Source: an uncultured Opitutales bacterium (GTDB taxonomy: Bacteria; Verrucomicrobiota; Verrucomicrobiia; Opitutales; Intestinicryptomonadaceae). From it: 64,000 nt of DNA. The position numbers were made by a program, and so were the translations under genes. Below, in pieces: positions 42,265 to 54,320 of the stretch (the stretch's first letter is position 1; every line of letters starts with the position of its first letter). The stretch lies in assembly GCA_944389885.1 (NCBI GenBank), contig CALXNZ010000011.1:1-64000 (forward strand). Reading direction: 5' to 3'. A model generated the notes under the pieces. The model was not told the DNA's origin. It did no database searches and was given only the letters and a program-made list of their open reading frames with translations.

Positions 42265-43290
42265 ATGAACGTTAAGAAGACATCGCTAAAAGATATTGCC
42301 AAAGTTGTTGGTTGCTCCACTACGACTGTTTCCAACGTCTTGAACGGCAAGGGTTTTTTCGGGGAAGGCGTAAAGGCTAAAGTTTTGGCGGCCGTAAAAA
42401 AGTATAATTATGCGATAAACGCTTCTGCCCGCAATTTGAGAATGGGTAAAACAGAGACGGTAGGGGTGTTGTTTTACAGGCCAAACGCCGACATATTTAA
42501 AAGCGAATTTTATCTAACTATGATGTACAGCTTGCAAAAAGAGCTGTTTAATCTCGGATACGAGATTCTCCTTTCCGAATATACCGACGCAAACGCCAAT
42601 TCTGCCGAGATTCCACGCATAGTCAGAAACGGCAGGGTGGACGGGGTAGTAATACTTGGCGGCTTCCCGTTTATCGCCTGCGGGCTTCTGTCGGAAATGC
42701 AGATACCAACCATAATGTTGGACTCTTTCTCGCCGCGCCTTGATTCGATTATAACAAACGGAGAAAAGTCCGGTTTCGATTCAGTCAAGGCTCTCGCCGA
42801 TCTCGGGCATCGCAGAATAGCGTATTTTGCATATTCGGCCGAAGATTATAATACCGACAGGCGCATAGACGGTTTCTTGAAAGCTGTAAAAGAATTGAAA
42901 CTCGATGTTTCAAACTCCCCTCTAATAAGGGATTTCGCCGACAATGACGGCGCTTGCGCGGCTTTCGACAAGCTCATGAAAAGCGCCTCAAAACTTCCCA
43001 CGGCGATAGTCGCCAGCAACGATAGTTTGGGGGCTTCTCTTATGACTCACGCCCAAGATGTCGGGTATTCTGTCCCGCGGGATATCTCATTCTTTGGACA
43101 CGACGACACTTTTGTATCGACTCGCTCTACGCCCCAATTATCCACTGTTCATGTGGATACGTCGGCAATAGGCGTCATAGGGGCCCACATGATAGTCGAT
43201 CGCATAAAAAATCCTTTGGGTCCCTTAGTTCATAAGATATTTGATTGCGCAACATGCCTGCGCGGTTCTATCGCCGCCCCGTCTGCGTAG
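42265..43290 (+). CDS. LacI-family transcriptional regulator
   Basis: A 341-residue repressor-type regulator. The N-terminal helix-turn-helix with hinge (~6-58) reads SLKDIAKVVGCSTTTVSNVLNG, typical for LacI members. From ~62 a periplasmic-binding-protein-like effector domain follows (TVGVLFYRPNA, DGVVILGG, RDISFFGHDD). The effector is probably a sugar. Neighbours suggest control of the FHS transporter and the ROK kinase/gmhA pair, or of the divergent alcohol dehydrogenase. No operator was found. It ends at a long perfect terminator. Confidence 0.92.
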   Translation: MNVKKTSLKDIAKVVGCSTTTVSNVLNGKGFFGEGVKAKVLAAVKKYNYAINASARNLRMGKTETVGVLFYRPNADIFKSEFYLTMMYSLQKELFNLGYEILLSEYTDANANSAEIPRIVRNGRVDGVVILGGFPFIACGLLSEMQIPTIMLDSFSPRLDSIITNGEKSGFDSVKALADLGHRRIAYFAYSAEDYNTDRRIDGFLKAVKELKLDVSNSPLIRDFADNDGACAAFDKLMKSASKLPTAIVASNDSLGASLMTHAQDVGYSVPRDISFFGHDDTFVSTRSTPQLSTVHVDTSAIGVIGAHMIVDRIKNPLGPLVHKIFDCATCLRGSIAAPSA

Positions 43291-43347
43291 AATTAGTGGA
43301 TTATTTCTCAAACATTTGATTTTTTCTACGGGAATAGAGAGATTCTT

Positions 43348-43393
43348 GCACAAAAAACGCTTCGCATATTTTATGCGAAGCGTTTTTTGTGCA
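43348..43393. terminator. Bidirectional terminator with a 22-bp perfect stem
   Basis: TGCACAAAAAACGCTTCGCATA (43348-43369) is exactly complementary to 43372-43393, leaving a 2-base loop. A- and T-runs inside the arms allow termination both for the LacI-type gene and for the leftward transporter gene. Confidence 0.8.
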
Positions 43394-43404
43394 TTGAATG
43401 TCGC

Positions 43405-44553
43405 TTATTGCCTTTTATGCCGCAAAAACGATATCGAGAGGATATACAGCGTGCATATGGCCGGCACTGAAAAACCGCATAAAATGGAAGTGCTGTCGGC
43501 AACAGCTCCCATTACAAGGGGGATTACGGCTCCGCCAAGTATTGCCGTCACCATAAGGCCGGAAAGCTCGTTGGAATATTCGGGCATTTTATCTATAGCC
43601 ATGGAGAATATGAGCGGGAATATATTGCCGAATCCAAAAGCTATGATTACAAGGGCTATTAAGGCAGCAGTTTGAGAGCCCGTAGCGAGTATCGCAAAGC
43701 CGAGCATCGAAAGTACTGTGGTGGAAATCAAGAAAGTGCGCGGAGAAATAAATTTGAGAATTATAGACCCTAAGAATCTGGACAACATTATCACAATAAA
43801 AAAGTACATAACGTACTGTGTTGCGGCGGTTCTTTCGACTTTGAATGTGTCGGAGAAGTAAACGGGCATGCCCGAGGACATGCAAACTTCAGCTCCGACG
43901 TAGAGGAAAATTCCCAGAACCATCATAAACACATATGGATTTCCCAATATTGAGAATGTGGAATATATTGAGGCCGACTTATTTTCAGATTTCTTTTCGT
44001 CGATTTTAATGCTTGCCACGGATATTAGCGATACCACGATGGCAATCATAAATACGGGGAATAGGACATTCCAACTTTGGGCTTCCGTATATCCTAACAG
44101 GTGGGCTGCAAAAAATACGAGGGGTGCGGTAAAAGAGCCAATGGCTTTTATAAACTGGGCCATTGAGAGGTTCCCGGAATATTTGCCCTCATCAGATACG
44201 TCGCGCATTATCGGATTTCCGGATACCTGTAAAATAGTGGCTCCGCCCCCGAGCAATAGCAGTGCCGCCAAGAATACAGTGTAATTGCCGAGAGCTCCGG
44301 TGGCGAATAGAATTATGCTTAAAAGGGAAACTATGAGCCCTATTAAAAGCGTCTTTTTTCTCCCTATGCGGTCTTGGACTATTCCCATTGGTATGGAAAG
44401 CAGCCCGAACATTAGAAATCCCGTAAATGCCACAAAATTCGCTTCAAAGTTGGTTAGGCTGAAGTGACCTTTTGCTATGTTTACAAAAGAGGCTACGGAA
44501 TCCCCGAAGCCCATACATACGAATGCCAAAAATATTGGTATAGTCTTTTTCAT
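43405..44553 (-). CDS. Sugar transporter of the MFS, FHS (FucP-like) subfamily
   Basis: A 382-residue major facilitator with about 12 membrane spans. MGIVQDRIGRKKTLLIG is the loop 2-3 motif. LLLLGGGATILQVSGNPIMRDV (TM4 region) and the C-terminal GNIFPLIFSMAIDKMPEYSNELSGLMVTAILGGAVIP run fit the fucose/glucose/galactose:H+ symporter subfamily. It is convergent with the LacI-type gene and divergent from the ROK kinase gene, which suggests uptake of a sugar that the kinase then phosphorylates. The substrate is not predictable; fucose is only one possibility. Confidence 0.88.
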   Translation of the reverse strand: MKKTIPIFLAFVCMGFGDSVASFVNIAKGHFSLTNFEANFVAFTGFLMFGLLSIPMGIVQDRIGRKKTLLIGLIVSLLSIILFATGALGNYTVFLAALLLLGGGATILQVSGNPIMRDVSDEGKYSGNLSMAQFIKAIGSFTAPLVFFAAHLLGYTEAQSWNVLFPVFMIAIVVSLISVASIKIDEKKSENKSASIYSTFSILGNPYVFMMVLGIFLYVGAEVCMSSGMPVYFSDTFKVERTAATQYVMYFFIVIMLSRFLGSIILKFISPRTFLISTTVLSMLGFAILATGSQTAALIALVIIAFGFGNIFPLIFSMAIDKMPEYSNELSGLMVTAILGGAVIPLVMGAVADSTSILCGFSVPAICTLYILSISFLRHKRQ

Positions 44554-44647
44554 TTCTACTTGACGTATTAAAATAAAATTTAGTATAACGATAAACTAAG
44601 CGAAAAATATAGGTCATTTTAGGAATTTTGTCAACGAAAAAACCTTT

Positions 44648-45625
44648 ATGGAAAATTATATAGGAGTAAACATAGGCGGCACAAAATGCTCGATTTCTTT
44701 AGGAAAAATCGAACAGGGAAGAATAAAGCTAATTGAGAGTCAGACTCTACCTACTGTAAAAAATCGTCCTTTGGAGATGATAGACAATTTCTGCTCTAAA
44801 ATTGCCGATATTTGTTCGCTTTCCGGATTGAAAATCTCCGATATAGCTTCGGTGGGGATAAGTTGCGGCGGGCCGCTCGATAGCGTAAAAGGCGTGGTTC
44901 AGTCTCCCCCAAACCTTCCCGGGTGGGACAATATTGAAATCGTGGATATAATCCGGCGGAATATTGGACTTCCGGCGTACATTCAAAACGACGCCAACGC
45001 ATGCGCCCTTGCGGAATGGCTATACGGGGCGGGTGTAGGCTTTAAAAATCTCGTGTTTCTCACTTTCGGCACGGGATTGGGTGCCGGAATAATCCTCGAC
45101 GGCCGCCTGTATTCCGGCACGAACGACAACGCCGGAGAACTCGGACATTTCAGATTGGATAACTTCGGGCCTGTCGGGTACGCCAAATGCGGCTCCTTTG
45201 AAGGCTTTTGCAGCGGCAGCGGAATCGCCCAGTTGGCCAAGCTCAAAGCTGCGGAATTGTTTCAGTCCGGAACTTCTTGCGCGTATTGTAGAAACATTGA
45301 CGACATTGACAAAATCAGCGCAAAAACGGTTGCGGAGGCTGCAAATTTAGGAGACGAAACCGCTAAAGAAGTTTATAGGATTTCCGGAGAGTATCTCGGC
45401 AAGGGATTGTCCATAGTAATAGATTTGCTCAATCCCGAAGTTATAGTCATAGGCAGTATTTTCGCGCGTTCAGAGGCCTTATTGCGCCCCTCTATGGAGG
45501 CCGCGATAAAGCGTGAGGCCCTCGTCCAGTCAGCCCGTGTTTGCAAAATTGTACCCGCAAAGCTCGGCGAGGATATCGGCGACTACGCGGCGTTGTCTGT
45601 GGCGGTAAACGGAGCTTTAAAATGA
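44648..45625 (+). CDS. ROK-family sugar kinase
   Basis: A 325-residue actin-fold sugar kinase. The phosphate-1 loop is GVNIGGTKCSISLG (4-17), ISCGGPLD lies in the N-domain, NDANACALAEWLYGAG contains the catalytic Asp, and GTGLGAGIILDG is the phosphate-2 loop. The ExGH motif is present as AGELGHF. The following zinc-binding CxCGxxGC cluster is largely absent: the segment reads AKCGSFEGFCSG. Its stop overlaps the start of gmhA in ATGA (45622-45625). Likely substrates are glucose, mannose or N-acetylhexosamines. Confidence 0.9.
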   Translation: MENYIGVNIGGTKCSISLGKIEQGRIKLIESQTLPTVKNRPLEMIDNFCSKIADICSLSGLKISDIASVGISCGGPLDSVKGVVQSPPNLPGWDNIEIVDIIRRNIGLPAYIQNDANACALAEWLYGAGVGFKNLVFLTFGTGLGAGIILDGRLYSGTNDNAGELGHFRLDNFGPVGYAKCGSFEGFCSGSGIAQLAKLKAAELFQSGTSCAYCRNIDDIDKISAKTVAEAANLGDETAKEVYRISGEYLGKGLSIVIDLLNPEVIVIGSIFARSEALLRPSMEAAIKREALVQSARVCKIVPAKLGEDIGDYAALSVAVNGALK

Positions 45626-46200
45626 ACTTAAAAAATATAATAAACAATTCATTAAACGAGGCTCGCAAGACTCTCGATATTTTTCTCTCGAATCCCGAAA
45701 ATCTCGAAAAAATCGAGGCCGCCGCGAATCTGATGTCCGGTGCGATAGCAAACGGGAAAAAGATAATATCGTGCGGAAACGGGGGGTCGCTTTGCGACGC
45801 AACCCACTTCGCCGAAGAATTGACTGCCCGCTTTAGGCTCGATAGGCGGGCATTTCCCGCCGTCGCCGTGAACGATCCCGCTTTTATAACCTGCGCCTCG
45901 AACGATTTCTCTCCGGATACCGTATTTTCCAGATATGTGGAGGCCTTGGGAAACGAAGGTGACGTGTTATTGGCCATAAGCACCAGCGGCAACTCTGCCA
46001 ACGTAATCGAGGCCGCAAAGGCGGCAATTTCAAAAGGAATAAAAGTTGTTGCCCTTACTGGAAAAAATGGCGGGGAACTCTCAAAAATCTGCAGTATTGA
46101 AATTAGGGCTCCTATGTCGAAATTTTCCGATAGAGTCCAAGAAATCCACATTAAGGTGATTCACATTCTTGTTGAATGCATTGAGGCTTCTCTGCTGTAA
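45622..46200 (+). CDS. gmhA: Phosphoheptose isomerase (sedoheptulose-7-phosphate isomerase)
   Basis: A 192-residue SIS-domain enzyme that turns sedoheptulose 7-phosphate into D-glycero-D-manno-heptose 7-phosphate, the first step of LPS core heptose synthesis. SCGNGGSLCDATHFAEELT (~51-69), the phosphate-binding STSGNSANV and DRVQEIHIKVIHILVE near the C-terminus match GmhA closely, including active-site Glu and His. The frame is open upstream into the ROK gene, but the ATG overlapping the ROK stop gives the family start. Translational coupling to a ROK kinase, rather than to hldE, is unusual. Confidence 0.93.
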   Translation: MNLKNIINNSLNEARKTLDIFLSNPENLEKIEAAANLMSGAIANGKKIISCGNGGSLCDATHFAEELTARFRLDRRAFPAVAVNDPAFITCASNDFSPDTVFSRYVEALGNEGDVLLAISTSGNSANVIEAAKAAISKGIKVVALTGKNGGELSKICSIEIRAPMSKFSDRVQEIHIKVIHILVECIEASLL

Positions 46201-48996: not shown

Positions 48997-50730
48997 ATGA
49001 AAAAAATACTGTTATCATGCATTTTTGCTTCGGCATCTTATATAGCTGTTGCCGACGTAAATATAAAGTTCGACGATTATTGCAAAGAGGGGGACAATGG
49101 CTTTGATGCAATGGCAAAAATTATAGAGATTGCCAGATCCAAGAATGGTGAACCCGTATTAGTCGAATTTTCAAACAAAACGTACGACTTTAAAAAAGCC
49201 CCGGAACATTCATGGTTTTTCCCTATCGTAGGCGTTGAAAACCTTACAATAGACGGCAAAGGCGCAAAGTTGATGATAGATCCCTTTAACGCCTACTGTA
49301 CGATAAATAATTGCAAGAATGTGACATTAAAGAACTTTGAATTCGTCCATAACAGGCTCGCATTCACTCAGGGCGATATTGTAGAAGTCACTCCGGAATA
49401 TTTTGTCTTTAAGCTTGATGACGGTTATCCGGAATTTCCCTCGCACGAATTTGTAATGAAGAATTATCCCGGCTCGCAATGGGTGTGGGGCAGCTTTATG
49501 GACAGGGAAGCCCGCACGCTTAAATACGGCTATCCCGACCACATCTTTGCCGCGAAAATAGAGCCTGCCGACAAGCCCAGACACTATAAATTTTATCCCC
49601 AGAAGCTGTACACGCATATTTTGAAAAATATACACCCCCCGGTGGCTTTTGTTATGCCAATACATCAAGATCCAAATAAAAGTTGGCGGAACAGCCATGG
49701 CCCATATACAATAGGAATTGCGGGGTCTTCCGATATTCTCATCGAAAATATTACTGCGCGCGCTACGCGTCATGCCGGGTGGTCTGGAGTCAACAACGAA
49801 GGCAAGATAACTTTCAAAAATTGCGTAGTCACTTGGCGCGAAAATTCAAGCGACCTAATATCCTCGTGGCGCGACGGCTCCCATTTTAAGAACAACAAGA
49901 TAGGTCCGGCATTCATTGGCTGCAAATGGGAGGGACTTCTGGACGACTCTATTAACATAGGCGCAAATCCGACTATGATACTTGAGGATATGGGAGACTC
50001 TACTTATAGGATTCGTGAGGGATCACTTAAAAAAGGGTGTCCCATTGCCATTCTTAATCCCAAGAACGGACAATGGCTTGAAGGCAAGGAGTGGTTTGTT
50101 GAGGATATTAGCGGGAATGTCGTAAAATTATCCAAACCTATTCCGGACTTGGTGCTCTATCAAAACCTAACAGATTACGAGAGAACTAGCGGCAGAGGCG
50201 GCATAAATATGGCCGCAACAGAAATCTTCAATATGGATTATGTGGGGGCCGGTTATGTTGTGCGCGACTGCAAATTCGGCAAGCAGCGCCGCTATTCCAT
50301 GATAATTCGCGCTCCAAACGGCACTATAGAGGACAATAAAATATACGGGGGAACAGGTATTCATCTCTCAAACGAGATAGGGAGTTGGTACGAAGGCCCC
50401 TTGCCGCGGAATACAAAGGTGCGCGGCAATACTTTTGAAAACACTTGGGGGCCATGCCCCCTGGTGGTGTCCGTCGGGATATTTCCGAATATAAAATTCG
50501 GGCTTCCCTACGGAATTTCGATTATAGACAATACATTTAAGCTTACAATGCCTGAAAATAAGTACGCTATATCGATATACAACGGTTCCGACTTTACGAT
50601 AAAGCGCAATAAATACTTCAATGCCCTTGACGAGCTTATTCCGGAGTCTGAGGCCGTGCATATTTCCGATTTTGTTGAAAATGTAAAAATGAAGTCCAAA
50701 ACTCCTGAAGCAAACAATGAGAAAAAATAA
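48997..50730 (+). CDS. Secreted parallel beta-helix protein, GH110-like (copy 1)
   Basis: A 577-residue exported protein with a signal peptide (1-19). Successive short strands (LTIDGKGAKLMID, CKNVTLKNFEFVHNR, SDILIENITARATRHAGW, KITFKNCVVTW, YVVRDCKFGKQRRYSM, GTIEDNKIYGGTG) form a right-handed parallel beta-helix. The DGSHFKN segment followed by CKWEGLLDDSINI resembles the acidic active-site rungs of GH110 alpha-1,3-galactosidases. It could be a blood-group-type or related galactosidase, or a lyase. The ATG shown is preferred to an upstream frame extension because it gives a proper signal peptide. It overlaps copy 2 by 14 bp. Confidence 0.75.
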   Translation: MKKILLSCIFASASYIAVADVNIKFDDYCKEGDNGFDAMAKIIEIARSKNGEPVLVEFSNKTYDFKKAPEHSWFFPIVGVENLTIDGKGAKLMIDPFNAYCTINNCKNVTLKNFEFVHNRLAFTQGDIVEVTPEYFVFKLDDGYPEFPSHEFVMKNYPGSQWVWGSFMDREARTLKYGYPDHIFAAKIEPADKPRHYKFYPQKLYTHILKNIHPPVAFVMPIHQDPNKSWRNSHGPYTIGIAGSSDILIENITARATRHAGWSGVNNEGKITFKNCVVTWRENSSDLISSWRDGSHFKNNKIGPAFIGCKWEGLLDDSINIGANPTMILEDMGDSTYRIREGSLKKGCPIAILNPKNGQWLEGKEWFVEDISGNVVKLSKPIPDLVLYQNLTDYERTSGRGGINMAATEIFNMDYVGAGYVVRDCKFGKQRRYSMIIRAPNGTIEDNKIYGGTGIHLSNEIGSWYEGPLPRNTKVRGNTFENTWGPCPLVVSVGIFPNIKFGLPYGISIIDNTFKLTMPENKYAISIYNGSDFTIKRNKYFNALDELIPESEAVHISDFVENVKMKSKTPEANNEKK

Positions 50731-52453
50731 AATACTATTTCTTGGATTTTTTCTTTCTTGGCTTGCTCCCCTTATCGGGGAGCAATGCGTTATAAAGTTC
50801 GACGATTTTCTAAAAGGGGGAAGCGACGGATTCGGGGCTATGAGCGAAATCATAGAGAGGGTTAAGGCAAACAACGGCGCTGAAACAGTGGTCGAATTTT
50901 CCGGGGGAACATACGATTTCAAGAAAGATCCCAATCATTCATGGTTCTTTCTCCTAAAAGATTTGGAGAATCTTACTATAGACGGCAAGGGCTCCAAATT
51001 GATGATTGATTCTTTTAACGCGTATGTTCGGATAGATTCCTGCAAAAATATTGCCATAAAAAATTTCGAGTTTGTGCATAACAGGCTCGCATTTACCCAG
51101 GGCGACATTGTAGATGTGACGCGCGAGTATTTTGTCATGAAGATAGACGACGGATACGACGAACCCGCATCGGAGGAATTCGTCAAAAAGTATTATCCGA
51201 ATTTGATGTGGATGTGGGGCAGTTTTATGGATAGGGAAGCCCGCACGCTTAAATACGGCTATCCCGACCACTTGTATATAGACAGGGTAGTCCCCGACGG
51301 CAAACCGCGGCATTACAGAATATATCCGGTCGCGCGTGAAAAAAATGTTTTGTCCATGTTGGAGAAGGGCGTCGCTTTTGCTATGCCATTGCACATGGAG
51401 CCAAATAAGTCATGGTTGGGTGGAATCGGGCCTTATACGATTTCCATACTTAATTCCTCGGATATTCTGGTCGAGAATATTACCGCGCGCGCGACGCGGC
51501 ACGCCGGGTGGTCGGGCAATAATAACCAGGGGAAGATAACATTCAAGAATTGCGTCCTCACTTGGCGCGAAAATTCAAGCGACCTAATATCATCGTGGCG
51601 CGACGGCTCGCATTTCAAGAACAACAAAATAGGGCCCGCGTTTATAGACTGCAAATGGGAGGGCATGTTGGACGATTCCATCAATATAGGCGCAAATCCA
51701 ATACTATTGGTGGAAGACAAAGGTGAGGGCATATACAAGATTCATGGCGGCAGATTGAAAAAAGGAAGCCGCATTGGCATATTTTATCCGAATACTGGAA
51801 AATGGATTGAAGACAAAGACCTGCGGGTGGAGGAAATAAATCAAAATGTCGTAAAATTTTCCAAGCCAATTCCCGACGCAAAGCTCTTTAAGATATTGTC
51901 GGCGGAGGATATTTTGGCGGGGAAAAAAGGTATAAACGCATCTTCCACGCAGCTCTATGACATGGATTATGTCTCCGCCGACTTTGTGGTTCGAAATTGC
52001 GAATTTGGAAAACAGCGCCGCTTCGCTATGATAATTCGCTCGCCGGGCGGAGTCATTGAAAACAACAGGATTTTTGGGGGCACCGGAATTATGCTTTCAA
52101 ATGAGGTCGGCTCGTGGTACGAGGGCCCATTGCCGAAAGATGTAAGGGTGCGCCGCAATACCTTTGAGGGCGTTTGGGGAACGGCGCCCCTAAAAATCTC
52201 CGCAAGCCTGTCGGCGAGGGTAAAAGTAGAGGAACCTTATAATATGCGCATATCCGACAATGTGTTTAAGCTTACAATGCCGGAAAATAAATGCGGAATT
52301 TCAATTTCCAACGGTTCGGGTTTCACGCTGAGGCGCAATAAATATTACAATGCCCTCGGCGATAGGATTCCGGAATCCGAAGGGTTGTCGGTATCTCCAT
52401 TCGCTTCGGGGGTTGATACAGGGAAGGAATCCAAAAAAGTTCAAGCTAATTGA
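50717..52453 (+). CDS. Secreted parallel beta-helix protein, GH110-like (copy 2)
   Basis: A 578-residue paralogue of the preceding protein, alignable along its whole length. The parts most conserved between the copies are FVHNRLAFTQGDIV, GSFMDREARTLKYGYPDH, TARATRHAGWSG, WRENSSDLISSWRDGSHFKN and WEG(L/M)LDDSINIGANP. This picks out likely active-site rungs. A signal peptide is present (1-21). It starts inside the end of copy 1 and ends at a strong terminator. Divergence in the first and last thirds suggests different substrates or linkages. Confidence 0.75.
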   Translation: MRKNKILFLGFFLSWLAPLIGEQCVIKFDDFLKGGSDGFGAMSEIIERVKANNGAETVVEFSGGTYDFKKDPNHSWFFLLKDLENLTIDGKGSKLMIDSFNAYVRIDSCKNIAIKNFEFVHNRLAFTQGDIVDVTREYFVMKIDDGYDEPASEEFVKKYYPNLMWMWGSFMDREARTLKYGYPDHLYIDRVVPDGKPRHYRIYPVAREKNVLSMLEKGVAFAMPLHMEPNKSWLGGIGPYTISILNSSDILVENITARATRHAGWSGNNNQGKITFKNCVLTWRENSSDLISSWRDGSHFKNNKIGPAFIDCKWEGMLDDSINIGANPILLVEDKGEGIYKIHGGRLKKGSRIGIFYPNTGKWIEDKDLRVEEINQNVVKFSKPIPDAKLFKILSAEDILAGKKGINASSTQLYDMDYVSADFVVRNCEFGKQRRFAMIIRSPGGVIENNRIFGGTGIMLSNEVGSWYEGPLPKDVRVRRNTFEGVWGTAPLKISASLSARVKVEEPYNMRISDNVFKLTMPENKCGISISNGSGFTLRRNKYYNALGDRIPESEGLSVSPFASGVDTGKESKKVQAN

Positions 52454-52469
52454 CTTTAAGCCAGAAATA

Positions 52470-52507
52470 AAAAAATCCCGCGCCGGTTTTACAGCGCGGG
52501 ATTTTTT
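52470..52507 (+). terminator. Terminator between the beta-helix operon and the DUF5696-like gene
   Basis: AAAAATCCCGCGC (52471-52483) pairs with GCGCGGGATTTTT (52494-52506). It is placed to serve the rightward beta-helix operon and, in reverse, the convergent gene. Confidence 0.8.
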
Positions 52508-52520
52508 GTGGTTTATAAAA

Positions 52521-54320
52521 CTATTTTCTTTTCAAGTTGAAATCGGCTCTTTCAGACGCCTTGTATAGTTCGTAGGACATCGGTTTTACGCTTTTGCCCA
52601 TATAGTCGAAAGAAGATTCGTTATAATTGCACACCATTTCGCTTCCGTCGGAATATTTTACTAAAAATACGTTGGGCGATATTTCAGAATGGGATTCCAT
52701 AAACTCGAATTGCAAATGGCGCAATTTCATGTATTCGTCATACATCTCTTTCATAGGCTCCAGATTTTTATAGTCTATGTAATAAAAAGCGGGGCGGCCG
52801 CCAAATTCCGTAAATTTTAATAGGCGGTTTTCTGTTGAACCAAGGTATGAATAGCTTGAGTTGCTGTCGGAAAGCTTTTCGTTTTCTCTTGGATAAGAGG
52901 CGTCTATGGTTCCATAGTACGGGGCGCTCAGTATTATACCGTGATAGACGATTTGCCATAGGGGCACCATGCGCTTTACCAGAGGATTATTTTCAGTTCC
53001 AGACCACAACACATAGAGGGCGTAGTCGGTCACTCCAGCTATATGGTCGAATCCTGCTTCGGAACTGTATGCTCCAAAGGTATCTATGCATTTTTGCGAT
53101 ATTTTTCGCTGATATTCGGCCTGAATTTTGCGGTTGCCCGGGTGCAGGGGATTATGGCATGGATGCGGCAATATGGCGGTTGTCACATCTACATGTTGCG
53201 TACCGTTAAATCCCACTTCTTTGAGCTTTGCCAAATCCTCGTCGAGGAAGCGGTCGTAGGACACTTGAAAGCATGAAAAGTAAACTTGTCCGCCCGGAAG
53301 CATGGTATATTTGCGCTCTTTTCCGTCAAGGCCCCACATGACATTTTTCGGATCATACCGGCTTGCGCTCTTGACAGTGTCGTGGTGGTTTATGTGAGAG
53401 GTGATTTGGAATCCGAGGCTCTTTCCGTAGGCTATGGCGTCAACCATTCCTTCCTCTCCACCAAATTCCTTATTTATAGGGAAAAGATCGGGGTAGGGAC
53501 CGTCGTGCCCGCCTTTTTGCCAACCTACAAAGCATACTTCCACATCTTTCATTCCGGCCTCGTGTATGCGCTTCATTATGTCTTTTGCGTCGGCAAAAGT
53601 GTTTAGGACTATTATCGGCAAATCCGCCCATTTTTCCTTGGGGGCGGCTCGGCGGTCCCTCCAGCCGAATTTTATGCGCACATAGATTGAATTTGCGGTA
53701 TATTCAAGAGTAGGATTGCCTTTTATCCTATCCTTTAAAGGCTTTACTTCCCCGCGGGAGAGTTGGTAGTTGCGATAGGTTCGCGCCATGCCGGAATAAT
53801 TGGCGTCTTCCCCTCTTAGCTTGTAATAGTCTATTACTATGTCTTCATAAGGGTCGAACTCCATATTCTTTATTTCAAATCGGGGGAATATCTCATAATT
53901 CCCGTTTTTTACTTCTACTGTCGGCTTGTATTCCAATGACAATCCCTTTACTATGGCTACCGCAGCCCCGCGCGGTGTCTTCATTCCCAATATAGGCATC
54001 AAGTTTTTAGCGCTGAAAAATCCCTTGTCTTGGGTGAATTCCATATAAGAGCCGTCCGGCGTAACGAAAAATCCGGCTTCGCCTTTCTTGGCTTTTGCGC
54101 AGTCAGCCACAACATCGATAGTCGTGCAATCTCTCGGAATCTCTCTTACGGGAATCATAACTCGAAATACATCGGGCTGAATCTCCTTCATCTCCACTTT
54201 TTTAGTCTCGTTTTTGCCATTCGGCCGATTTATCCGTATTTCCGCGCTTTCAAATGCCGAGCTGGTTATTGCCGAAAGCATTATCAACAGCAATATATGC
54301 AATTTTCTCATTATTTTCAT
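52521..54320 (-). CDS. Secreted DUF5696-like protein with glycosidase-type barrel
   Basis: A 599-residue exported protein (signal peptide ~1-22, ending SSA-F). The region ~205-470 has the pattern of DUF5696 / GH101-like TIM-barrel proteins: TFADAKDIMKRIHEAGMKDVEVCFVGWQKGG, LGFQITSHINHHD, LKEVGFNGTQHVDVTT and AYSSEAGFDHIAGVTDY, which carry Asp and Glu residues at strand ends. The N-terminal ~190 residues look like a beta-sandwich. Its position next to the two beta-helix genes suggests a shared glycan target. The enzymatic activity has to be shown. Confidence 0.6.
   Translation of the reverse strand: MKIMRKLHILLLIMLSAITSSAFESAEIRINRPNGKNETKKVEMKEIQPDVFRVMIPVREIPRDCTTIDVVADCAKAKKGEAGFFVTPDGSYMEFTQDKGFFSAKNLMPILGMKTPRGAAVAIVKGLSLEYKPTVEVKNGNYEIFPRFEIKNMEFDPYEDIVIDYYKLRGEDANYSGMARTYRNYQLSRGEVKPLKDRIKGNPTLEYTANSIYVRIKFGWRDRRAAPKEKWADLPIIVLNTFADAKDIMKRIHEAGMKDVEVCFVGWQKGGHDGPYPDLFPINKEFGGEEGMVDAIAYGKSLGFQITSHINHHDTVKSASRYDPKNVMWGLDGKERKYTMLPGGQVYFSCFQVSYDRFLDEDLAKLKEVGFNGTQHVDVTTAILPHPCHNPLHPGNRKIQAEYQRKISQKCIDTFGAYSSEAGFDHIAGVTDYALYVLWSGTENNPLVKRMVPLWQIVYHGIILSAPYYGTIDASYPRENEKLSDSNSSYSYLGSTENRLLKFTEFGGRPAFYYIDYKNLEPMKEMYDEYMKLRHLQFEFMESHSEISPNVFLVKYSDGSEMVCNYNESSFDYMGKSVKPMSYELYKASERADFNLKRK

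What the first reader, a model, noticed from the sequence alone, without database searches (positions are those of the whole stretch)
48997..54320. Tandem beta-helix pair plus DUF5696-like gene: a candidate host- or plant-glycan locus
Two secreted paralogues overlap by 14 bp, and a secreted barrel protein converges on them. The rungs with DGSHF and LDDSIN resemble GH110 alpha-1,3-galactosidases, and DUF5696 proteins are near GH101-type barrels. Together they would suit mucin or blood-group glycans. No transporter or sulfatase is adjacent, so the set is unlike classic PULs.
Basis: partly seen in the sequence, partly recalled or inferred. Interest (0 to 1): 0.55.

Follow-up and report, generated by a model that had tools for sequence, protein, structure and literature searches.

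The report
GH110-like enzyme pair beside DUF5696 glycosidase
Three neighbouring genes of an uncultured Verrucomicrobiota bacterium encode probably exported sugar-cutting enzymes that resemble known alpha-galactosidases but have altered sugar-binding pockets, so their target is probably not the blood-group or mucin sugar first proposed.

Summary
P0001 and P0002 are 61% identical tandem paralogues overlapping by 14 bp; P0003 (DUF5696) converges on them across a hairpin terminator. P0001 is predicted with high confidence as a GH110-fold beta-helix: the 15 best PDB chains are all GH110. DGSHF and LDDSIN hold the three GH110 catalytic aspartates. It is nevertheless not ordinary GH110. Four of seven -1-subsite residues are replaced (N85, R265, R453, E480) and an arginine is gained, a signature shared by a subfamily of 14 proteins. 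E480 is the residue reported to block a 6-sulfate pocket in PdGH110B. Outside this genus, sulfatases lie within 260 bp of 5 of 6 subfamily genes examined. P0003 has the GH129/GH101 fold and GH129's catalytic Asp/Glu, but lacks most of its presumed calcium site. Best reading: two exo-acting, inverting alpha-galactosidase-like enzymes adapted to a C6-modified or C6-acidic sugar, plus one retaining alpha-glycosidase. Mucin or blood-group targeting is not supported; species carrying the subfamily have zero to six sulfatases. Substrate remains unknown. In passing: DUF5696 is hugely expanded in this genus, at least 45 genes in one 2.4 Mb genome.

The parts
48997..50730 (+). P0001, GH110-like right-handed beta-helix protein with N-terminal hydrophobic segment; catalytic D293, D316, D317; R438 subfamily arginine
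50717..52453 (+). P0002, tandem paralogue of P0001 (61% identical), same mapped active-site residues except Y433 to F and H234 to I
50717..50730 (+). 14-bp overlap of the two paralogues, suggesting one transcript (inference)
52470..52507 (-). 16-pair GC-rich hairpin with T run between the convergent genes, a likely shared terminator
52521..54320 (-). P0003, DUF5696 protein, GH129/GH101-type barrel; D378 and E421 align with NagBb D435 and E478
42265..43290 (+). LacI-family regulator, part of a nearby conserved sugar cassette (loosely linked)
43405..44553 (-). MFS sugar transporter, nearest NCBIfam models gluP/fucP/nagP, all below cut-off
44648..45625 (+). ROK-family sugar kinase
45619..46200 (+). 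SIS-domain isomerase, just below cut-off for D-sedoheptulose-7-phosphate isomerase

Best explanation
P0001 and P0002 are two exported, probably co-transcribed, exo-acting glycosidases of an unnamed GH110-related subfamily. By homology, D316 donates a proton to an alpha-linked terminal sugar while D293 and D317 activate a water (inverting). Loss of N85, R265, R453 and E480 and gain of an invariant arginine (R438) remodel the -1 pocket around C6, so the sugar accepted is probably a galacto-configured residue with a sulfate, carboxylate or other group at C6 rather than plain galactose. P0003 is a retaining alpha-glycosidase of the DUF5696 branch of the GH129/GH101 fold, with D378 as nucleophile and E421 as acid/base. 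Released sugars may enter through the MFS-ROK-SIS cassette nearby. Shown here: predicted fold, conserved catalytic residues, site differences, genome context. Inferred: export, activity, C6 preference, co-transcription, link to the cassette.
For: AlphaFold2 model of P0001 has pLDDT 90.5. Foldseek ranks 1-15 are all GH110 (E 5e-22 to 9e-20), rank 16 drops to 1.5e-7. VIA-align gives nine GH110 entries at Z 35-37 over 489-501 residues, then RbmB at 31.4 over 319 (a tenth GH110 entry, 8yk1, scores 29.9 over 500). The D344N mutant 7jwf differs from wild-type 7jw4 at the residue aligned with the first D of LDDSIN; PMC7939477 names D344 as general acid and D321/D345 as bases. Subsite mapping: (14 of 14 subfamily rows lack N85 and carry R at the R438 column; 13 of 14 lack R453 and 13 of 14 lack R265; 13 of 13 with letters lack E480). 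PMC12549532 passages say E480 of GH110B blocks the 6-sulfate pocket that GH110A opens with R460 there. Sulfatase within 260 bp in 5 of 6 loci outside the genus; rough chance estimate 3e-6 to 9e-6. P0003 model pLDDT 92.3; NagBb Z 36-38 over 508-519 residues, ZgGH129 31-33, next 23; D435/E478 equivalents each in 29 of 30 rows.
Against: No activity is known for any member. Within this genus no sulfatase was recognised next to the subfamily genes in the gene listings of the fetched loci (not every neighbour was Pfam-scanned), and two of four carrier species have no PF00884 match, so a sulfated substrate does not carry over directly. Two further subfamily genes in G133 do not have a sulfatase within 1 kb: L049:11969 (none within 8.5 kb on one side, contig end on the other) and C166:3396 (nearest 2.6 kb, locus not fetched). 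One subfamily row keeps R453 (L047) and one R265 (L096). The six loci were chosen by score, and sulfatases are abundant in those genomes. GH110-like and DUF5696 genes lie together in only two of four carrier species.
Confidence: 0.5

Rival explanations
1. The pair are ordinary alpha-1,3-galactosidases (GH110) and P0003 an alpha-N-acetylgalactosaminidase, acting together on mucin O-glycans or blood-group antigens.
For: GH110 fold and catalytic aspartates; GH129/GH101 similarity; W486, E488, N348 and R451 equivalents kept.
Against: N85, R265, R453 and E480 lost; GLAA-B barrel Pfam domains absent from P0001/P0002 at E up to 1 though present in canonical L012; three of four NagBb residues of the presumed calcium site lost and W398 replaced by leucine in P0003; few or no sulfatases and fucosidases in carrier species.
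Confidence: 0.12
2. The pair release a C6-acid sugar (for example alpha-linked galacturonic acid) from plant pectin side chains or rhamnogalacturonan, with R438 binding the carboxylate.
For: Third paralogue L011 lies beside a GH78 rhamnosidase and a GH35 beta-galactosidase, and a GH78-like gene lies near G248's copy in L096; clan relatives in GH28 are exo-polygalacturonases (rows 3jur, 2uvf; PMC7939477); E480 loss opens the C6 side.
Against: No GH78/GH35/pectinase next to the window pair itself; relatives outside the genus sit by sulfatases; carboxylate binding is inferred from sequence alone.
Confidence: 0.2
3. The two genes are redundant duplicates whose neighbourhood with DUF5696 is coincidental; the three proteins do not act on one glycan.
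For: DUF5696 genes are so many in this genus that neighbours are expected; GH110-like plus DUF5696 neighbourhood occurs in 2 of 4 carrier species; in G102 and G115 a GH110-like gene sits between a shikimate-kinase-like and an antiporter-like gene (names from the sequence starts, recalled); active-site residues of P0001 and P0002 are nearly identical.
Against: In G165 a GH110-like gene, a DUF5696 gene and the ROK-SIS-MFS cassette lie within about 9 kb (L046), much as in the window; likely shared terminator.
Confidence: 0.35

Closest known systems
GH110 exo-alpha-1,3-galactosidases (PdGH110B 7jw4, GH110A 9beh, AgaBb 8yk1-3, PpaGal 9i4f, Akkermansia 8pvs)
   Same: Whole-length beta-helix fold, three catalytic aspartates, N348, R451, W486 and E488 equivalents
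   Different: 14-18% identity; N85 loop absent, R265, R453 and E480 replaced, new invariant arginine, no GLAA-B barrel Pfam match
GH129 alpha-N-acetylgalactosaminidase NagBb (5wzn)
   Same: P0003 aligns over about 510 residues (Z 36-38); D435 and E478 equivalents kept
   Different: H271, H320 and D322 (three of the four residues changed in the 5wzq quadruple mutant) replaced; W398 platform is leucine in P0003
ZgGH129/DagB alpha-1,3-(3,6-anhydro)-D-galactosidase (5opq, 8rzk)
   Same: Same fold (Z 31-33) and the shared aspartate D486
   Different: Its authors report NagBb's second catalytic residue is not conserved there (PMC5698469), whereas P0003 keeps an acidic residue at E478
GH101 endo-alpha-N-acetylgalactosaminidases (EngBF, SpGH101)
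   Same: Related barrel; PF12905 match to P0003 just over cut-off (26.1 vs 25)
   Different: Much weaker structural match (Z about 21, rmsd 7-8) and only 88 residues matched by the Pfam model

Membership tests
GH110 | Full-length GH110 beta-helix fold | tested here: met
   predicted model
GH110 | Catalytic Asp triad (D321, D344, D345 of PdGH110B) | tested here: met
   D293, D316, D317, invariant in 29 of 29
GH110 | Conserved -1 subsite (N85, R265, N348, R453, E480, W486, E488) | tested here: not met
   N348, W486, E488 kept in P0001/P0002; N85, R265, R453, E480 lost
GH110 | Conserved +1 Arg451 | tested here: met
   R431
GH110 | GLAA-B beta-barrel Pfam domains PF23763/PF23764 | tested here: not met
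   absent from P0001/P0002 at E up to 1, present in L012 but also absent from L013 at E up to 0.01, so not a strict criterion
[quoted passage not shown]
   needs purified protein
PF18952 DUF5696 | Score above the curated cut-off | tested here: met
   151.7 vs 25.6 bits
GH129 | Fold of NagBb | tested here: met
   predicted model
GH129 | Catalytic D435 and E478 | tested here: met
   D378, E421. D435 as catalytic from PMC5698469; the role of E478 is recalled
GH129 | Calcium site and W398 platform for GalNAc | tested here: not met
   H271 to R, H320 to C, D322 to V, H366 kept, W398 to L. W398 role from PMC8106489; the calcium ligands are inferred from the 5wzq mutations
GH101 | PF12905 score above cut-off and GH101 architecture | tested here: inconclusive
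   26.1 vs 25 bits over 88 residues; searches place GH129 far closer

The most novel reading that the evidence does not exclude
P0001/P0002 belong to an undescribed glycosidase subfamily of clan GH-N type that cleaves alpha-linked galacto-configured sugars bearing a C6 acid or sulfate: sulfatase-linked in other Verrucomicrobiota lineages, and re-used without sulfatases, probably on plant acidic glycans, by a genus that has also expanded DUF5696 alpha-glycosidases to dozens of copies.
Probability: 0.27. Interest if true: 0.62.

Novelty: new variant of a known kind. Interest (0 to 1): 0.43.

Why it matters
GH110 members have been described as sharing one galactose-binding subsite. A subfamily that keeps the catalytic triad but rebuilds that subsite, and that travels with sulfatases in several lineages, would be a source of exo-enzymes for C6-modified alpha-galactosides. 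DUF5696 is listed by Pfam as a family of unknown function; the conserved Asp/Glu pair and GH129-like fold make it directly testable as a glycosidase family, and its expansion in this genus marks it as important for these bacteria.

Tried and rejected
Sequence search of named genomes with P0001 alone found no relative. With alignment A3 it found four loci in three MAGs titled Verrucomicrobiaceae bacterium SIG74 and uncultured Opitutales bacteria BRZ_A__bin45 and E09__bin38; their habitat was not verified, so any gut origin is a guess. NCBIfam gave no model for any of the three proteins. Literature searches for DUF5696 and PF18952 returned zero papers in the held library; this covers open-licence PMC papers only. 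Searches joining GH110/GH129/Verrucomicrobia, Opitutales with rumen, and Verrucomicrobiota with mucin and ruminant showed nothing describing this locus in their listings. PMC6388578 (passages) describes sulfatase-rich Kiritimatiellales but does not mention GH110. Chance adjacency of sulfatases was considered and judged unlikely, but the estimate uses approximate counts and score-chosen loci. A mucin reading was tested through sulfatase, GH20 and GH29 counts: weakened, not excluded. The tree is midpoint-rooted for drawing only. Rows L096_16335 (catalytic D replaced by G, cut by the locus end) and L097_10790 (a different subgroup) were left out of the count of 14; L048, a contig-end fragment, was left out of A1. 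A 102.6-bit match in G234 was not examined. Of the 43 entries marked GH110-like only 28 plus P0001 went into A1: duplicates, fragments and the weakest or longest were dropped by hand. VIA-align lists only what Foldseek ranked; families not listed are not excluded.
Full report
WHAT IS THERE. The window is C11:1-64000 of a 2.2 Mb draft genome in 27 contigs. P0001 (48997-50730, +) and P0002 (50717-52453, +) overlap by 14 bp and are 61% identical over 573 aligned residues. P0003 (52521-54320, -) is a 599-residue DUF5696 protein. A strong hairpin separates the convergent genes. All three begin with a hydrophobic stretch. The genome has a third close paralogue of P0001 (L011, 53%), two more distant GH110-type proteins (L012, L013), and eight DUF5696 loci counting P0003.

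THE PAIR. A single-sequence search of the PDB finds GH110 enzymes: 8 of the 12 distinct sequences at E up to 1 for P0001 and 8 of 11 at E up to 0.1 for P0002. A profile of 29 relatives matches PdGH110B over 546 positions at E 5e-130. The AlphaFold2 model of P0001 (pLDDT 90.5) ranks 15 GH110 chains first, with a large gap to the next structure, and aligns with nine GH110 entries at Z 35-37 over about 490-500 residues; a tenth, 8yk1, scores 29.9, among unrelated beta-helices at 27-31 that align over only about 290-340 residues.

CATALYSIS. In the alignment, D293, H296, D316 and D317 are invariant in 29 of 29 sequences. They align with D321, H324, D344 and D345 of PdGH110B. The D344N mutant structure differs from wild type at the residue aligned with the first D of LDDSIN. 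The PdGH110B paper (PMC7939477; abstract, passages and sections 6-7 read) names D344 as general acid and D321/D345 as bases of an inverting mechanism, and calls the -1 subsite remarkably conserved across the family.

WHERE IT DEPARTS. P0001 and P0002 keep N348, R451, W486 and E488 but lose N85 (the loop is absent), R265, R453 (aromatic) and E480 (serine). Adding relatives from other lineages gives 14 subfamily rows: 14 of 14 lack N85, 13 of 14 lack R265, 13 of 14 lack R453, 13 of 13 with letters lack E480, and 14 of 14 have arginine at the R438 column, against 0 of 12 in the canonical-type group. That canonical-type group keeps N85 in 8, R265 in 9, R453 in 11 and E480 in 7 of 12 rows, so it varies too. 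A 2025 paper on lambda-carrageenan (PMC12549532; passages) reports that E480 of GH110B blocks a pocket in which GH110A, with R460 there, binds the 6-sulfate. Loss of E480 therefore predicts an opened C6 side. That R438 binds a C6 acid group is my inference.

EVOLUTION. In a tree of 30 rows, P0001 and P0002 are sisters (100/99), joined by L011 (93/94), inside a clade of eight from one genus (100/99) and with two G133 sequences (100/98); L012 and L013 fall in another group. The search of a named genome collection (84,980 species, degenerate-pattern method) found the clade in three MAGs. Of 177 genomes of the order, 32 had any match at E up to 0.001, and those with a match above 100 bits were G000, G102, G115, G165 and G133. 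In 387 genomes of the phylum, matches of 31-34% identity above 170 bits occurred outside the order in G248, G414 and G276. Tandem copies also occur in G115, where one gene is cut by a contig end; flanking genes match the single-copy locus of G102.

CONTEXT OUTSIDE THE GENUS. I examined six loci: the best subfamily genes of G248 (3), G414, G276 and G133. Pfam confirms sulfatases in all six. Five lie within 260 bp of the subfamily gene and one is about 1.9 kb away. A rough estimate with genome-wide sulfatase counts gives 0.3-0.5 expected and P of 3e-6 to 9e-6 for five or more. Two further G133 genes (L049:11969 and C166:3396) do not have a sulfatase within 1 kb. In the window's genus the picture differs: PF00884 matches number 6, 2, 0 and 0 in G000, G102, G115 and G165.

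DUF5696. P0003 scores 151.7 bits to PF18952 and just passes PF12905 (GH101). Its model (pLDDT 92.3) matches NagBb (GH129) at Z 36-38 over 508-519 residues, ZgGH129 at 31-33 and other families at about 23 or less. NagBb D435 and E478 align with D378 and E421; 29 of 30 rows have each, the exception being L062. D435 as catalytic is stated in PMC5698469 (passages); the role of E478 is recalled. Of the four NagBb residues changed in the 5wzq quadruple mutant, P0003 keeps only H366; the residues were read from sequence differences, and I infer they are the calcium site. The W398 GalNAc platform (PMC8106489, passage) is W in 19 of 30 rows and L in P0003. So P0003 works like a GH129/GH101 enzyme but is not filed as GH129.

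NEIGHBOURHOOD. A LacI - MFS - ROK - SIS cassette at 42265-46200 has counterparts in G102, G115 and G165, the first two with a further gene between SIS and MFS; the G102 one is GH2 by Pfam, the G115 one was judged by its similar start only. DUF5696 genes lie within about 10 kb of it in three of these four genomes (window, G102, G165) and not in the 19.9 kb fetched from G115. Because DUF5696 is so frequent, this is suggestive only. Nearest NCBIfam models for the transporter and kinase are below cut-off.

VERDICT. The mucin/blood-group target is not supported. The pair belongs to a GH110-related subfamily with a rebuilt sugar pocket, which I did not find described in the papers searched; calling it GH110 without qualification is not justified because the conserved -1 subsite was tested and not met. 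Substrate is open; a C6-modified or acidic galacto-sugar is my preferred guess.

Noticed in passing
G102, G165, G115 genomes; tandem array L093:2173-9537: DUF5696 is strongly expanded in this genus: I counted at least 45 distinct places by hand in the listed G102 matches (54 first-look candidates, 2.4 Mb genome), with 38 candidates in G165 and 30 in G115. In a 387-genome phylum sample the most was 24 candidates. G102 has four DUF5696-type genes head to tail.
   Followed up: partly
L092:7764-17270 (+): A 3168-residue open frame in G102 begins with a DUF5696 domain and continues with beta-helix repeats, immunoglobulin-like domains and a weak pertactin match, next to GH88 and heparinase-like genes.
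   Followed up: partly
L019, L022, L023, L024 (non-canonical GH110-like group): A second GH110-like group carries arginine where PdGH110B has E480, as reported for GH110A R460, and alanine in place of N348; it may accept 6-sulfated galactose.
   Followed up: no
window 42265-46200; L046, L086, L087: Conserved MFS - ROK kinase - SIS isomerase cassette of this genus, with a LacI gene nearby in the window, G102 and G115 and an extra gene (GH2 by Pfam in G102) inserted in G102 and G115; substrate unknown.
   Followed up: partly
L043:7211-13723: The third paralogue of P0001 in this genome (C23) lies next to a GH78 alpha-L-rhamnosidase and a GH35 beta-galactosidase, hinting at plant glycans.
   Followed up: partly
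G000:C10:71920-73760 and G000:C5:67629-69428: DUF5696 loci in the own genome whose matches are split; the tool reports one TAG inside each second piece when aligned to P0003. C10 has separate frames and may be a broken gene.
   Followed up: no
L062:1483-3201 (G145): A DUF5696 protein with both catalytic positions changed (D to E, E to G), possibly inactive.
   Followed up: no
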